Positions 22,701 to 29,091 of a stretch of DNA of 64,000 nt are shown piece after piece (the first letter of the stretch is position 1; every line of letters begins with the position of its first letter). Under the pieces are notes generated by a model. The model was given only the letters and a program-made list of their open reading frames with translations, did no database searches and was not told where the DNA came from. The DNA is taken from positions 62,001 through 126,000 of the forward strand of contig NZ_JASHIU010000003.1 of the NCBI RefSeq assembly GCF_030733545.1, read 5' to 3'. Origin of the DNA: Oceanicaulis sp. MMSF_3324. GTDB taxonomy: Bacteria; Pseudomonadota; Alphaproteobacteria; Caulobacterales; Maricaulaceae. The position numbers and the translations under genes are program-made.

Positions 22701-23309
22701 TCAGCCTTTGGATGCGTGCCTTTGTTCCAGCACACCGGCCACATCCGCCAGGGACAGGCCCCGCGCCTTGAGCGTCACCATCAGGTGAAAGACCAGGTCG
22801 GCCGCCTCGCCCAGCAGGGCCTCATCATCTTCCGCGGCCGCGGCGAGCGCGGTTTCCACGCCTTCTTCACCCACTTTCTGAGCGCATTTCAGGACACCCT
22901 TGGACAGAAGCTTGGCGGTGTAGCTGTCCTTGGGCGCATCATTGGCGCGCGCATCAATCACATGCTGCAGCTCGCCCAGAAAGGCGAGCTCCGGTCCGGG
23001 CGCTTCGCCAAAACAGCTATGACTGCCCGTATGACAGGTTGGGCCCGCCGGACGCGCCCGCACCAAAATCGCATCAGCGTCACAATCGGTCGCCACGGAG
23101 ACGAGCGAGAGCGTATTGCCTGAGGTCTCCCCCTTGGTCCAGAGCCGCTCCTTGGAGCGCGACCAGAACGTCACAAGGCCCTTTTCCTGGGTTGCATCCA
23201 GCGCCTTGGCGTTCATATAGCCCAGCATCAGCACCTCGCCGGTGTCGGCGTGCTGCACGATGGCCGGGGCCAGGCCGCCACCCTTCTTCCAGTCGATCTG
23301 CAAGCTCAT
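22701..23309 (-). CDS. hisIE: Bifunctional phosphoribosyl-AMP cyclohydrolase / phosphoribosyl-ATP pyrophosphatase
   Basis: 202 residues, a fusion performing steps 3 and 2 of histidine synthesis. The HisI half (~1-110) shows [26 protein letters not shown], with the zinc Cys and Mg Asp residues. The HisE half (~110-202) shows [14 protein letters not shown] and [17 protein letters not shown], the MazG-like pyrophosphatase core. Alphaproteobacteria usually carry separate hisI and hisE; the fusion is the gammaproteobacterial/Bacteroidetes form and matches the rest of this operon. Overlaps hisF by 4 bp; last gene of the operon. Confidence 0.96.
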
Positions 23310-24073
23310 AGCCGTATCTCCACGCCTTCTGCGGATAACCAGGCCTTAAGATCAGGGATGGCGATCACAGCTTTATGAAAGACACTGGCCGCGAGCGCGC
23401 CATCCACATCCGCTTTCTGAAAGACGTCGCGGAAATGGTCCATGGCGCCGGCGCCGCCCGAGGCGATGAGCGGAACCGAACACGCCTCACGCGCCGCTGC
23501 GAGCTGATCGATGTCATAGCCTTCGCGCACGCCGTCCTGGTCCATGCAGTTGAGCACGATCTCGCCCGCGCCGCGATCCACAACCTCGCGAATCCAGTCC
23601 AGCGTCTTGCGATGCTCGGTAGAGGTCTTGGACGGGTCGCCCGTATTCTTGTGGCAACGCCAGTCACCATCGATCACACGGCTGTCGATGCCGACCACCA
23701 CACACTGGGAGCCGAACTCCTTGGCCATGGCATCGATGAGACCGGGGTTTTCAAGGGCTGGCGTATTGATCGAGATCTTGTCCGCCCCGCCAAACAGGCG
23801 CGCCCGGGCGTGTTCAAGTGAGCGTATGCCGCCTGCGACGCAGAACGGAATGTCGATGGCCTGCGCCACGCGGCCCACCCATTCAGGTTCAACCGTGCGC
23901 CCGGACGGGCTGGCGCTGATGTCGTAGAAGACCAGCTCGTCCGCGCCCTCTTCGGCATAACGTCGCGCCAGCTCTTCGATGCCGCCCACATCCTCGTGGT
24001 TCTGGAACCGGACGCCCTTCACAACACGGCCGTCACGCACATCCAGGCAAGGAATGATCCGACGCGCTAGCAT
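23306..24073 (-). CDS. hisF: Imidazole glycerol phosphate synthase, cyclase subunit
   Basis: 255 residues. Catalytic Asp residues are in [15 protein letters not shown] (D11) and [11 protein letters not shown] (D130 equivalent). With HisH it converts PRFAR plus glutamine-derived ammonia to IGP and AICAR. The text reads as enteric-type His[27 protein letters not shown], a TGD-containing loop, and [15 protein letters not shown], all close to the gammaproteobacterial version and unlike the usual alphaproteobacterial GADELCFLDITAS form. Overlaps hisA by 7 bp and hisIE by 4 bp. Confidence 0.97.
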
Positions 24074-24792
24074 GCCAGCGCCTCCTCCAGCGTGAACCGG
24101 CCCTCAAATAACGCCCGACCGATAATCGCGCCCGAGACGCCCTGGTCCTTCAGCGCCCTGAGATCGTCGAGCGAGGATACTCCGCCTGACGCCTGCCAGT
24201 TCATGTCCGCACGGATCTTGGACAAGTCCTCATACAGCTCGAGATTGGGACCCTCGAGCATGCCGTCACGCGCCACATCGGTCGCAAGGGCATGGCTGAG
24301 CCCGCCTGTGCGATATTCGGCCAGAAGGTCGGCCAGCGGCGTGACGGATTGTTCGGTCCAGCCGCGCAGGGTCGGGTAAGCAACGCCATTATCGGCGATC
24401 TTGACGTCAAAGGCGGCGGCGATCTGTTCAGAACCAAAGGCCGCGATCCAACCGATCACGGTCTGGGGCTCGCTGACCGCCAGGCTGCCGATCACGGCCC
24501 GACTGGCGCCGGCATCAAGGATGGCCTCCACGTCTTCACGCGTGCGCACACCGCCGCCGGTCTGGACCTTCAGACCCACATCGGCAATGGCGCGCACCAG
24601 ATCCTGCTGGCGACGCGCGCCGTCGCGAGCGCCGGACAGGTCCACAAGATGCAGCCAGTCCGCGCCGGCGGCCTTGAATTGCTCGGCCACGGCGACCGGA
24701 TTGTCGCCATATTCGGTGACGGCGTCGAAATCGCCCTTGGCCAGCCGCACGACGCGACCGTCAAGAACATCAATGGCGGGATAGAGGATCAT
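24067..24792 (-). CDS. hisA: Phosphoribosylformimino-5-aminoimidazole carboxamide ribotide isomerase
   Basis: 241 residues, a TIM barrel related to HisF. Catalytic Asp residues are in [15 protein letters not shown] and [14 protein letters not shown]; phosphate loops are [12 protein letters not shown] and [11 protein letters not shown]. It performs the Amadori isomerisation of ProFAR to PRFAR. The [16 protein letters not shown] and [21 protein letters not shown] segments resemble enteric HisA. Overlaps hisH by 4 bp. Confidence 0.96.
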
Positions 24793-25388
24793 GCCGCGCC
24801 CTTTACAAAATTGGTCAGGATTTGCGCGCCGGTCTTGGCCGAGCGCTCGGGATGAAACTGGCAGCCGGCCACATGGCCCTTGCGAGCGATGGCCGTAATG
24901 CCGATTCCATAATGCGTGGAGGCCGAGGTGTGCGCGCTGAGCGGCGTGTAAAAGCCATGCACGAAATAGACATGCGCCCCGTCAGTTACGCCTTCAAGCA
25001 GCGGCTCGTCCGACTTCACCGGCGTCAGCGTGTTCCAGCCCATATGCGGCCAGGGTCCATCGCTTCCAGGATCCAGTCGCTCGACCCGTCCCGGGATCAG
25101 CCCCAATAGCTCGCAATCACTTTCGACCGAGTAATCAAACAGCAATTGCATACCCAGACAGACCCCCAGAAGCGGCCGCTGATCACCTTGCAGGGCCTGG
25201 GCCCAGCCGGTCGCTTTCAATCGCGTCATGGCCGGCCCGGCCGCGCCGACGCCCGGCAGGATGATGCGGTCACATTCGCTCGCCTCATCAGGCGTTTCCG
25301 CCAGCTTGTAGCGCGCGCCCAACCTCTCCAGCGCATAACGCACCGACGCGATGTTCGCGGTCGAAGTGTCGACGATCGCAGTGGTCAT
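24789..25388 (-). CDS. hisH: Imidazole glycerol phosphate synthase, glutaminase subunit
   Basis: 199 residues from ATG 25388 (TGATG overlap with the hisB stop); a GTG one codon upstream at 25391 is an equal alternative. Class I glutamine amidotransferase triad: Cys in LLGVCLGMQLLF, His and Glu in CQFHPERSAKTG. It supplies ammonia to HisF. Fits the hisB-hisH-hisA-hisF order. Confidence 0.97.
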   Translation of the reverse strand: MTTAIVDTSTANIASVRYALERLGARYKLAETPDEASECDRIILPGVGAAGPAMTRLKATGWAQALQGDQRPLLGVCLGMQLLFDYSVESDCELLGLIPGRVERLDPGSDGPWPHMGWNTLTPVKSDEPLLEGVTDGAHVYFVHGFYTPLSAHTSASTHYGIGITAIARKGHVAGCQFHPERSAKTGAQILTNFVKGAA

Positions 25389-26584
25389 CACAAAACGCCT
25401 TTCGTAGACGGAAGAGCATCACCCTCGACGCGCACCGCCATGCGCAGCGCCCGGCCGAACGCCTTGAACGTGCTCTCGATCATGTGGTGAGCATTGTCGC
25501 CCTCCACCTTCACATGCAGCGCGGCCTTCAGGCTCTCCGCTATGGACCGGAAAGCGTGCGGGCACATTTCGACCGGGAAATCGCCCACACGATCGCCCGG
25601 GATCTCGCCTTCAAACACCGCGTAGGGCCGGCCGGACAAATCAATCCAGACCCCGGCGCGGGTTTCATCCATGGGCAGTTCAAAACCGAAGCGGGCAATG
25701 CCGCGCTTGTCCCCGAGCGCCTGTCGCAAGCCTTCGCCCAGGGCCAGACAGACATCTTCAATGGTGTGGTGGGCGTCGACCTCCAGATCGCCTTGGCAGG
25801 ACACGCTCAATGCAATCCCGCCATGGCGCGCGATCTGCTCGAGCATGTGATCGAAAAAGGCGTTACCGGTATCAATATCCGCGCCCTCACGATCAAGATC
25901 GAGGCTGAGCGTGATCTCGGTTTCCTTGGTCACCCTGCGAACGGTCGCGATGCGCCGCTGGGCGGAGAACCCCAGAAAGTCACTCAATTCGCGGGCTGTC
26001 TGGGCATCACGCACATGCCCGACCAGGCCTTCGCCATCTTCAGCAAGCACAAGTCCGAGCCGCCCCAGAGTCATCGGATTGGTGTGCTCATAGACCAGAC
26101 CGCGGGAAGTAACCTGCGCCACCTCGCCCAGTTCTTCTGACAGAAGCTGGGCGATGTCCTGCAAGATCGCATCGCGTTCCTCGCGATCCTTGCGAGCGGC
26201 CAGACGGGCGCCCGGGCTGAGCTGGGTCAGGCCTTCTTCCAGAAGACAGCATGGCACGGCGTTGAGCTTGCTCTGCAGCAAAGCCGCCTGATTGGCGTCC
26301 ATGGCGGACAGAACCGTGATCGGGGTCTGCTGCCCGCCGATCCGATATAGCGTAAGGCCTTGCTGGGCCGGCTCGTCCAGAGCAATGACGCCATCCGCGC
26401 CGAAATCATGGGTCAGGGTCAGCTCGCTGCTCCAGACCGCCTGCCGGGCTTCATCCGTGCTCGAGGCCAGCGCGAGATATTCCTTGGGCGTCTCCAGAAG
26501 GGTTTCCAGCCGCTCCAGCAAGAGCTGCTCTCCCATGGCGCGCATATCCTCAGGACGTTTGGAGAGATCGAATACACCGCTCAT
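25388..26584 (-). CDS. hisB: Imidazoleglycerol-phosphate dehydratase with unusual N-terminal extension (degenerate HisC-like)
   Basis: 398 residues. The C-terminal ~190 (from about 209) are a complete IGP dehydratase: TKETEITLSLDLDREG, FFDHMLEQIARHGG, the metal-binding VDAHHTIEDVCLALGEGL and HHMIESTFKAFGRALR, ending RVEGDALPSTKGVL as in the enteric bifunctional HisB. The N-terminal 208 residues (25961-26584) are not the HAD histidinol-phosphatase found in enteric HisB: no DxDGT motif is present. By eye they follow the start and the end of HisC (PKEYLALASSTDEARQ; LSPGARLAARKDREERDAIL; VRDAQTARELSDFLG) without the central PLP-lysine region. Overlaps hisD and hisH. Dehydratase function is secure; the N-terminal assignment is a hypothesis. 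Confidence 0.92.
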   Translation of the reverse strand: MSGVFDLSKRPEDMRAMGEQLLLERLETLLETPKEYLALASSTDEARQAVWSSELTLTHDFGADGVIALDEPAQQGLTLYRIGGQQTPITVLSAMDANQAALLQSKLNAVPCCLLEEGLTQLSPGARLAARKDREERDAILQDIAQLLSEELGEVAQVTSRGLVYEHTNPMTLGRLGLVLAEDGEGLVGHVRDAQTARELSDFLGFSAQRRIATVRRVTKETEITLSLDLDREGADIDTGNAFFDHMLEQIARHGGIALSVSCQGDLEVDAHHTIEDVCLALGEGLRQALGDKRGIARFGFELPMDETRAGVWIDLSGRPYAVFEGEIPGDRVGDFPVEMCPHAFRSIAESLKAALHVKVEGDNAHHMIESTFKAFGRALRMAVRVEGDALPSTKGVL

Positions 26585-27885
26585 CGGTCTGCCTTTCTCT
26601 GTCGGCGCAAAACCATGGCGAGACGGTGAGCGTCCAGCCCTTCCAGGGTCGCCAGGCGCTCCACGACAGGGCCCAGCGTCTGAAGGCTGGTCTGGCTCAA
26701 CTCCAGCACGGTTGTCGTCTTCTGGAACATCTCGACCGTCACACCCCCATAGGCGCGTGCAGCGCCCGCTGTGGGCAGGGCGTGATTGGGTCCGGCGGCA
26801 TAATCGCCTGCAGCTTCAGGCGTCCACGGCCCCAGAAAGATCGAACCGGCATGACGAATTTTGTTCGCCAGCGCACGCGGATCGTCTGTCTGTACAATAA
26901 GGTGTTCGCTGGCATAGGCGTTCGCCGCCTCGGCCGCTTCGTCATCCGAACTGACCAGCACCACACGAGAGTTCGCCAACGCTGCTCGCGCTGTCTCTGC
27001 ACGGGGCAGATCGCCCAGCAAACGCTCGATCTCGTTTTCAACCTGGCGCGCGAACGCATCCGAATAGGCGACAAGAACCACCTGGGCCAGAACATCGTGT
27101 TCAGCCTGACTCAAGAGGTCGATCGCCACAAGCTCAGCGTCAGCCTTGTCGTCGGCGACCACCATCACCTCGCTCGGCCCGGCCGGCAGATCCGCCGCTG
27201 CGCCATCCGGGCTTTGGGCCAATAGGGATTTCGCAGCGGCGACATAGGCGTTGCCCGGACCGAAAATTTTGTCCGCTTTCGGCAAGCCAGCCGCGCCTAG
27301 CCCAAGCGCGGCGACACCATGCGCGCCGCCAATGGCGTAGACCTCATCAACGCCCAGCAAGGACGCAGCGGCCAGAACCGTGGGCTCCACCCCCTGCCCC
27401 TTGCACGGCGGCGCAATCACGGCGATGCGCGGCACCTGCGCCAGCTGGGCGGGCACGGCCAGCATGATCAGGGTTGAGACCAGTGGCGCCGTGCCCGCTG
27501 GCACGTACAGTCCGGCCACATCAATCGGGGTCACCCGGCGTCCGGCCCGGGCGCCCGGCCAGGTCTCGACCTCATAGGAGCGGTAGCCCTGTTCCGCGTG
27601 AAAGGTGCGAACGGCGTTCGCAGCATCCAGAATGGCCGCCCTGTCATCTCCGCTGAGCGCATCAGCGGCGGCTTTGAGTTCAGTCTGCGGCACGCGAAAC
27701 CCGGCCTCAGGCGCCCAGCCGTCCAGACGAACTGCATATTCGCGCACAGCCGTTTCGCCCCGCGCACGCACATCATCCAGGATGGATTGCGCGACCTTGA
27801 GCGCATCAGACCCCAGCGACGGTCGTTCGAACAGGCGCTGACGCGTCTCGGCGTCCGCCTGGCTCCATTCAATTCGGGTCAACAT
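26581..27885 (-). CDS. hisD: Histidinol dehydrogenase
   Basis: 434 residues. The enzyme oxidises histidinol to histidine in two NAD-dependent steps. Visible: VAGLYVPAGTAPLVSTLIMLAVPAQ-type core, IFGPGNAYVAAAK, DLPAGPSEVMVVAD, LLSQAEHD (zinc Gln/His region) and NHALPTAGAARAYGGVTVEMFQK with the general-base Glu/His pair. Reads as a full-length functional enzyme. One bp separates it from hisG and it overlaps hisB by 4 bp. In enteric-type operons hisC would follow here; it does not. Confidence 0.97.
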   Translation of the reverse strand: MLTRIEWSQADAETRQRLFERPSLGSDALKVAQSILDDVRARGETAVREYAVRLDGWAPEAGFRVPQTELKAAADALSGDDRAAILDAANAVRTFHAEQGYRSYEVETWPGARAGRRVTPIDVAGLYVPAGTAPLVSTLIMLAVPAQLAQVPRIAVIAPPCKGQGVEPTVLAAASLLGVDEVYAIGGAHGVAALGLGAAGLPKADKIFGPGNAYVAAAKSLLAQSPDGAAADLPAGPSEVMVVADDKADAELVAIDLLSQAEHDVLAQVVLVAYSDAFARQVENEIERLLGDLPRAETARAALANSRVVLVSSDDEAAEAANAYASEHLIVQTDDPRALANKIRHAGSIFLGPWTPEAAGDYAAGPNHALPTAGAARAYGGVTVEMFQKTTTVLELSQTSLQTLGPVVERLATLEGLDAHRLAMVLRRQRKADR

Positions 27886-27886
27886 G

Positions 27887-28774
27887 TCAGGCCATCATCT
27901 TTTCAATCGGCATGACCAGGATGGATCGCGCGCCAGCCGCCTTGAGCTGTTCCAGCGTGGACCAGAATACGGCTTCGGTGCAGACGGCGTGTACGGCGAC
28001 AACGTCCTCCCGCCCCACAACAGGCGCCACGGTCGGCGCATCCGTGCCCGGCAGAATGGCGCGCACCTGTTCCAGCCGGTCGCGCGGCGCATTGAGCAGG
28101 ATGTATTTGGTCTGCCGGGATGCGATGACCCCCTTGAAGCGCTCGATCAGGCGTTCGGCAGTATCGGCAACGGTCTCGGAGGACGCCGTCTTGCGACGCA
28201 CCAGAACCGCCTCGCTTTCCAGCACGGTTTCAAACGCCGCCAGCCCGTTCGCTTCCAGCGTGGCGCCGGTCGAGACCAGGTCGCAAATGGCGTCCGCCAC
28301 GCCCATGCGCGGGGCCACTTCGACGCTGCCGCCCATTTCCACGATTTCCGCGTTGACGCCTCGCTCCTTGAGATAGGCGTCGGTCAGGGCGGGATAGCTT
28401 GTGGCGACCGTCTTGCCATCCAGATCCGCCGCCGATGTGATGCCGCCCTCCTTGGGCGCTGCGAGTTTCAGCGTGCACCGGGCGAAACCGAGCTTGAGCG
28501 CAATTTCCAGATCGGCCATGCGGCTGGACTTGTTCTGCGCCTCATAGAGCACGTTCTCGCCCACAATGCCGTAATCGCACGCGCCAGATGCGACGAAGCT
28601 CGGGATGTCGTCATCGCGGATCAGCATCAGATCGATCGGTTCGTTTTCGGACCGGCGCAGCAGGTCATCCCGGCTGTAGGCCAGCTTGACCCCGGCTCGC
28701 TTGAGCAGATCCAGGCCGCCTTCGGCCAGTCGCCCCTTTTTCTGGACGGCCAGCGTCAATCGGTTCTCGGTCAT
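27887..28774 (-). CDS. hisG: ATP phosphoribosyltransferase, long form
   Basis: 295 residues, first committed step of histidine synthesis. Phosphate-binding loop: DAICDLVSTGATLEANGL. The C-terminal ~75 residues, ending FWSTLEQLKAAGARSILVMPIEKMMA, are the ACT-like regulatory domain of HisG-L, which gives histidine feedback inhibition. Many alphaproteobacteria instead use a short HisG with HisZ; this long form is of enteric type (also NGSVEVAP-like GGSVEVAPRMG). Overlaps the yerC stop by 4 bp. Confidence 0.97.
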   Translation of the reverse strand: MTENRLTLAVQKKGRLAEGGLDLLKRAGVKLAYSRDDLLRRSENEPIDLMLIRDDDIPSFVASGACDYGIVGENVLYEAQNKSSRMADLEIALKLGFARCTLKLAAPKEGGITSAADLDGKTVATSYPALTDAYLKERGVNAEIVEMGGSVEVAPRMGVADAICDLVSTGATLEANGLAAFETVLESEAVLVRRKTASSETVADTAERLIERFKGVIASRQTKYILLNAPRDRLEQVRAILPGTDAPTVAPVVGREDVVAVHAVCTEAVFWSTLEQLKAAGARSILVMPIEKMMA

Positions 28775-29091
28775 GAGCCTTGCTCCTTCAGACGATCCAG
28801 CACCAGCTGGTATCCTTGATGCTCTTCCTGGGTAAGGAAACGGGCGACTCGGGTGACGGTGGTGGTGCTGACGCCCGTATCCGCGCTGATCTCGCGGTAG
28901 GACTTCTCTCCTTCCGCCAACAGACGCGCCACGCGCCAGCGTTCCGCCAGAGCCTGCATTTCGCCCGGCGTCGTCAGGTCCTTCAGGAAACGCTGCATCT
29001 CCTCGCTTGAGCGCAAGGTCAGCAACGCATCACACAGCGCCTTGATATCTTCCGGACCGCCTACGCGGGTGCGTGTCAGGGACTCCGCCAT
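28771..29091 (-). CDS. TrpR-related transcriptional regulator, YerC/YecD family
   Basis: 106 residues. The TrpR-like helix-turn-helix is clear in LTTPGEMQALAERWRVARLLAEGEKSYREISADTGVSTTTVTRVARFL. First gene of the his operon, overlapping hisG by 4 bp, preceded by GGAGG and a short leader. The family lacks the tryptophan-binding evidence of TrpR; location suggests it senses histidine or a pathway intermediate and controls its own operon. A tandem TAGCGTG repeat in the promoter spacer is the obvious candidate site. Confidence 0.9.
   Translation of the reverse strand: MAESLTRTRVGGPEDIKALCDALLTLRSSEEMQRFLKDLTTPGEMQALAERWRVARLLAEGEKSYREISADTGVSTTTVTRVARFLTQEEHQGYQLVLDRLKEQGS

What the first reader, a model, noticed from the sequence alone, without database searches (positions are those of the whole stretch)
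25388..26584. HisB carries a 208-residue N-terminal domain that looks like a decayed, internally deleted HisC
Seen: IGP dehydratase occupies only residues ~209-398. The preceding 208 residues contain no HAD motif. Their first part (LETPKEYLALASSTDEARQAV, then GADGVIALDEPAQ) follows the N-terminal part of HisC where the chain reads ..KPEQVLVSRGADEGI.. and ..DAILYCPPTYG... Their second part (LSPGARLAARKDREERDAIL, GEVAQVTSRGLVY, VRDAQTARELSDFLG) follows the HisC C-terminal small domain in order and spacing. The SPNNPTG, DEAY and SK-AF (PLP lysine) blocks are missing. Known: in the matching gammaproteobacterial operon hisC sits just before hisB, whose own N-terminus is the HAD phosphatase. Inference: a deletion from within hisC to the HAD/dehydratase linker fused a hisC remnant to the dehydratase; the remnant was kept in frame through long divergence, so it may serve assembly, stability or regulation rather than catalysis.
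Basis: partly seen in the sequence, partly recalled or inferred. Interest (0 to 1): 0.85.

Follow-up and report, generated by a model that had tools for sequence, protein, structure and literature searches.

The report
HisB carrying a decayed HisC domain
In these bacteria the histidine enzyme HisB still carries, on its front end, the shrunken and apparently dead leftover of a second histidine enzyme (HisC) to which it was once fused; related species show the steps from intact fusion to dead domain to leftover to replacement by another enzyme.

Summary
The 398-aa HisB (25388-26584, minus strand) has an intact dehydratase at residues 209-398. Residues 1-208 match no Pfam or NCBIfam model, but a profile of 32 such extensions matches a HisC profile in two collinear blocks, well above 100 column shuffles. 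A poor model built without HisC sequences has a HisC as best, but weak, PDB match. Relatives settle the origin: 72 of 85 HisC-like extensions keep the PLP lysine, i.e. intact HisC fused to HisB; Brevundimonas-group loci have mostly Leu there; the window's lineage has a ~200-aa remnant; others have HisD fused instead. Remnant genomes hold a separate HisC (32 of 32); intact-fusion genomes mostly do not (15 of 68). Its present role is inferred: a translated, inactive appendage. The papers searched showed no HisC-HisB fusion.

The parts
25388..26584 (-). hisB gene: HisC-remnant extension + IGP dehydratase, 398 aa
25961..26584 (-). residues 1-208: HisC-derived remnant, no PLP lysine
   Evidence: profile match, models and fold searches, tree
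26426..26530 (-). residues 19-53: block that aligns with fused-HisC residues 60-94 of L024
   Evidence: hhalign score 31.9, best of 100 shuffles 16.5
26306..26425 (-). residues 54-93: outside both local profile matches; most of the HisC large domain (PLP site) is lost around here
   Evidence: partly missing in relatives L008, L009, L020, L021
25967..26305 (-). residues 94-206: block that aligns with fused-HisC residues ~229-353 (after the PLP block, to the C-terminal small domain)
   Evidence: hhalign 95.9%, E 5.8e-9, best of 100 shuffles 17.3
25391..25960 (-). residues 209-398: IGP dehydratase domain
26581..27885 (-). hisD (name recalled from sequence); its TGA overlaps the hisB ATG (ATGA)
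27887..28774 (-). hisG (name recalled from sequence)
24789..25391 (-). hisH (name recalled from sequence)
24067..24792 (-). hisA (name recalled from sequence)
23306..24073 (-). hisF (name recalled from sequence)
22701..23309 (-). hisIE (name recalled from sequence)

Best explanation
Residues 1-208 are the vestige of a once complete HisC domain. Shown: HisC and IGPD are fused, without the HAD phosphatase, in many relatives; in the Brevundimonas group the fused HisC has lost its PLP lysine; in the window's lineage it has lost most of the large domain as well but stays in frame, starts at an ATG that overlaps the hisD stop, and evolves under relaxed purifying selection. Shown by co-occurrence: a second HisC of a distant type, elsewhere in the genome, makes the fused one redundant, and a HisN-type phosphatase gene is present where HAD is missing. 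Inferred: the dehydratase works as usual; the remnant does no transamination and is kept because hisB's start, coupled to hisD, lies in front of it and because the chain must still fold (an inactive small-domain cap on the IGPD oligomer). A new function is possible but not needed.
Confidence: 0.8

Rival explanations
1. The remnant has been recruited to a new job: it helps assemble or stabilise the IGPD oligomer, or docks another His enzyme or ligand, as a pseudoenzyme domain.
For: dN/dS 0.05-0.40 in 19 pairs and 84-88% identity among L001-L003; no stop inside any of the 30 listed matches with a locus, remnant rows included; invariant G83 and P124, nearly invariant L22, L122, A197, L200, L204 in 32 sequences.
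Against: The extension changes faster than IGPD in all 19 pairs (dN 1.5- to 23-fold); it is shorter in L008, L009, L020, L021 and absent in the HisD-fused lineage. No partner or ligand known.
Confidence: 0.35
2. The extension is a decayed HAD phosphatase, the usual partner of this IGPD type.
For: The dehydratase is of the type whose gammaproteobacterial relatives carry HAD.
Against: No HAD similarity by profile (0.2%) or HMM (L001 score 0); HisC similarity well above shuffles.
Confidence: 0.02
3. The extension is an unrelated new domain or an untranslated open frame; IGPD starts internally.
For: Long open frames are common in this DNA; several frames run on upstream of the start.
Against: Start overlapping or next to the hisD stop, dN/dS well below 1, HisC profile match.
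Confidence: 0.03

Closest known systems
HisC, histidinol-phosphate aminotransferase
   Same: Remnant derives from it: two collinear blocks and similar topology
   Different: About 150 residues lost, with PLP lysine, NPTG and DEAY blocks; no activity expected
HisNB (E. coli-type HAD phosphatase-IGPD fusion)
   Same: IGPD domain of the same lineage; compact his cluster in gamma-like order (order in E. coli recalled)
   Different: N-terminal partner is HisC-derived, not HAD; a HisN-type phosphatase gene lies elsewhere
Short N-terminal domain of Balneolota HisB (PMC8305728, section 14 and passages read)
   Same: IGPD with an extension of unknown role, unlike HisN
   Different: No HisC similarity in two sequences tested; weak 22-column HAD resemblance only (hhalign 49%)
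HisZ, catalytically dead HisRS paralogue that regulates HisG (recalled, no call)
   Same: Dead enzyme kept in histidine synthesis
   Different: HisZ is a separate subunit with a known role; here the dead domain is fused and its role unknown

Membership tests
HisC (TIGR01141) | score above curated cut-off | tested here: not met
   residues 1-208: 0 NCBIfam families at E<=10; no HisC model among the 3 families matched by any of 32 remnants at E<=1
HisC (TIGR01141) | PLP-binding lysine, NPTG Asn, DEAY | tested here: not met
   not seen in the alignment of 23 remnants or in the remnant rows shown by the motif scan; Lys present in 72 of 85 HisC-like fused loci
HisC (TIGR01141) | common ancestry / fold | tested here: met
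IGP dehydratase (PF00475) | domain above gathering score | tested here: met
   195.5 bits against 27
IGP dehydratase (PF00475) | dehydratase activity | not testable with these tools
   HHTIED and HHMIES motifs present (role as metal site recalled)
HisNB bifunctional enzyme | HAD phosphatase domain at the N-terminus | tested here: not met
   hhalign 0.2%; HMM score 0 for L001; NF003937 280.4 bits against cut-off 443, matched from res 208 only
retained pseudoenzyme domain | catalytic residues lost, purifying selection kept | tested here: met
   dead HisC of the Brevundimonas group

The most novel reading that the evidence does not exclude
A bifunctional HisC-HisB enzyme, made in a gamma-type operon that moved into alphaproteobacteria, turned into a monofunctional dehydratase whose dead HisC half was reshaped into a lineage-specific structural or docking module of the dehydratase oligomer, with the Brevundimonas group (dead but nearly full-length) and the window's lineage (minimal) as separate stages or separate events.
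Probability: 0.35. Interest if true: 0.78.

Novelty: new variant of a known kind. Interest (0 to 1): 0.64.

Why it matters
Gene fusions are usually shown as finished products. Here related bacteria show what looks like the whole course: HAD-IGPD, HisC-IGPD, dead HisC-IGPD, minimal remnant-IGPD, HisD-IGPD, with the redundancy (a second HisC) that allowed the decay. It makes testable whether a dead fused domain persists from a new function or because its partner cannot easily shed it. A 2007 survey of histidine fusions (PMC1963479, passages read) names hisA/hisF, hisIE, hisHF, hisNB and hisIED, and does not mention hisC (0 occurrences).

Tried and rejected
Tried without result: Pfam and NCBIfam scans of the extension alone and of 32 remnants (only scattered chance matches); profile search of PDB sequences (one match, E 1.8, unrelated). 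MAFFT of the remnant together with HisC sequences gave a wrong register (and at the start of the fragments in 63), so I judged register from hhalign only. Single or double loss of HisC activity: not resolved (p-AU 0.37); remnant plus HisD rows (without L085) form one group, support 80 only. HAD origin rejected.

Left out before counts: one search used 120 of the 121 genomes with a HisB match (G142, a 40-aa fragment, dropped) out of 137 searched; the 2 HisD-fused genomes without a separate HisC are 90% and 69% complete; 4 intact-fused genomes show no HisC over cut-off at all (contig ends). One search used 125 of 218 loci (thinned; at least eight loci are places fetched twice). One search dropped the unfused and Balneolia rows and half of the large intact group (93 rows). 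One search used 29 of 57 gamma HisC; I did not measure where these lie relative to hisB. One search read the 30 best of the matches in 81 genomes; the 80 genomes with a match include weak matches to the separate HisC. One search chose starts automatically for loci not listed by hand; two of its values (L002, L133) look like a wrong stop. The middle of the output (L088-L136) was cut.

Full report
What is there. The window holds a compact his cluster on the minus strand: hisG, hisD, hisB, hisH, hisA, hisF, hisIE (names other than hisB recalled from sequence). hisB (25388-26584) encodes 398 aa. Residues 209-398 are IGP dehydratase. Residues 1-208 match nothing in Pfam or NCBIfam.

Stages in relatives. 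Of 218 loci with IGPD, 73 carry an intact HisC, 59 a HAD domain, 36 the remnant (32 distinct places), 22 HisD, 13 a dead HisC and 15 nothing recognised (at least eight loci are places fetched twice). In 85 HisC-like extensions the PLP lysine is kept in 72, replaced or missing in 12, and cut off by a contig end in one. In the Brevundimonas group the 30 best-matching loci have Leu (29) or Phe (1) at the lysine; a further one read has Met (L261), and one genome of the group (G200) has an intact fusion. The IGPD tree places HAD-type sequences outside; intact HisC fusions form one starred group of 35, and 4 more sit beside the dead ones (support 81); remnants and most HisD fusions fall together (support 80 with all remnants). 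Whether catalysis was lost once or twice is not resolved (p-AU 0.37).

Where the fused HisC came from. In a HisC tree the 16 intact fused domains and 4 dead ones share a starred branch with 14 of 29 gammaproteobacterial-type HisC found in the same loci as HAD-type hisB, while the four separate HisC of this order lie on a branch of length 3.0; the dead ones also sit on a long branch, 2.8. The simplest course, inferred: a gamma-type operon entered this lineage, the HAD part of HisNB was lost and hisC joined to IGPD, then redundancy with the resident HisC let the fused HisC decay. A separate HisC over the cut-off is present in 32 of 32 remnant genomes, 18 of 20 HisD-fused, and 15 of 68 intact-fused genomes (genomes are related, so the Fisher p of 9.6e-18 overstates it). 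In the Brevundimonas group 76 of 81 genomes have a HisC over the cut-off. The window's genome has one separate HisC (314.9 bits; NPNNPTG and an SK block visible) and a HisN-type phosphatase (282.5 bits, cut-off 275.15), so HisC and phosphatase steps are covered outside HisB.

Is it maintained? The extension is open in every remnant locus; the hisB ATG overlaps the hisD stop as ATGA in 20 of 32 distinct places and the stop lies within 5 bases in 30, by an automatic reading. dN/dS of the remnant is 0.05-0.40 in 19 pairs against 0.01-0.13 for the dehydratase beside it, with dN 1.5- to 23-fold higher in the remnant; dead HisC gives 0.21-0.32 in four pairs; intact fused HisC gives 0.05-0.13 in the 9 of 12 pairs with finite dS, several of them with dS near 2. 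So selection looks relaxed but not absent. In the window's closest relatives it is 0.05-0.07, with dS of 1.4-1.8, too saturated to lean on.

How it works. Shown: dehydratase intact by family match; HisC catalytic blocks gone; frame and start kept; backup enzymes present. Inferred: HisB acts as an ordinary dehydratase; the remnant is a folded, inactive cap kept since hisB's coupled start precedes it. A recruited structural or docking role is the main rival. Relatives with HisD in its place show that the remnant itself can be dispensed with.

Literature. PMC1963479 (passages) lists five his fusions and does not mention hisC; PMC10138114 (passages) lists seven fused his genes without hisC; PMC8305728 (section 14 and passages) reports an unexplained short N-terminal domain on Balneolota HisB. 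Searches listed no paper whose title or abstract start points to a HisC-HisB fusion; of the listed papers I opened only these three, and the library is open-access only.

Noticed in passing
L082, L096, L107, L108, L113, L119, L129 (upstream of IGPD) and L226-L255: Brevundimonas group: fused HisC nearly full length but with the PLP lysine changed (29 Leu, 1 Phe in the 30 loci); a dead aminotransferase domain across much of a genus.
   Followed up: partly
L022, L085, L138-L141, L143: HisD fused in frame directly to IGPD, no HisC remnant (20 of 120 family genomes; also a Hyphomonadaceae MAG, L085, placed elsewhere in the tree).
   Followed up: partly
L098, L121 (Balneolia): IGPD with a 107-157 aa open extension; weak 22-column HAD resemblance (hhalign 49%), perhaps a parallel decay of the HAD partner.
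   Followed up: partly
G174, G195, G205, G215 (Brevundimonas group): Assemblies rated 100% complete with no HisB match at E<=0.001: possible histidine auxotrophs.
   Followed up: no
L257 (G207): Dead HisC domain split between two frames in a single-contig genome.
   Followed up: no
L075: MAG labelled Hydrogenophilaceae carries a dead HisC-IGPD that groups with an alphaproteobacterial MAG; possible mis-binning.
   Followed up: no
window 28771-29091 (-): 106-aa TrpR/YerC-like helix-turn-helix protein at the head of the his cluster (name recalled); possible his regulator.
   Followed up: no
[not shown]
   Followed up: no
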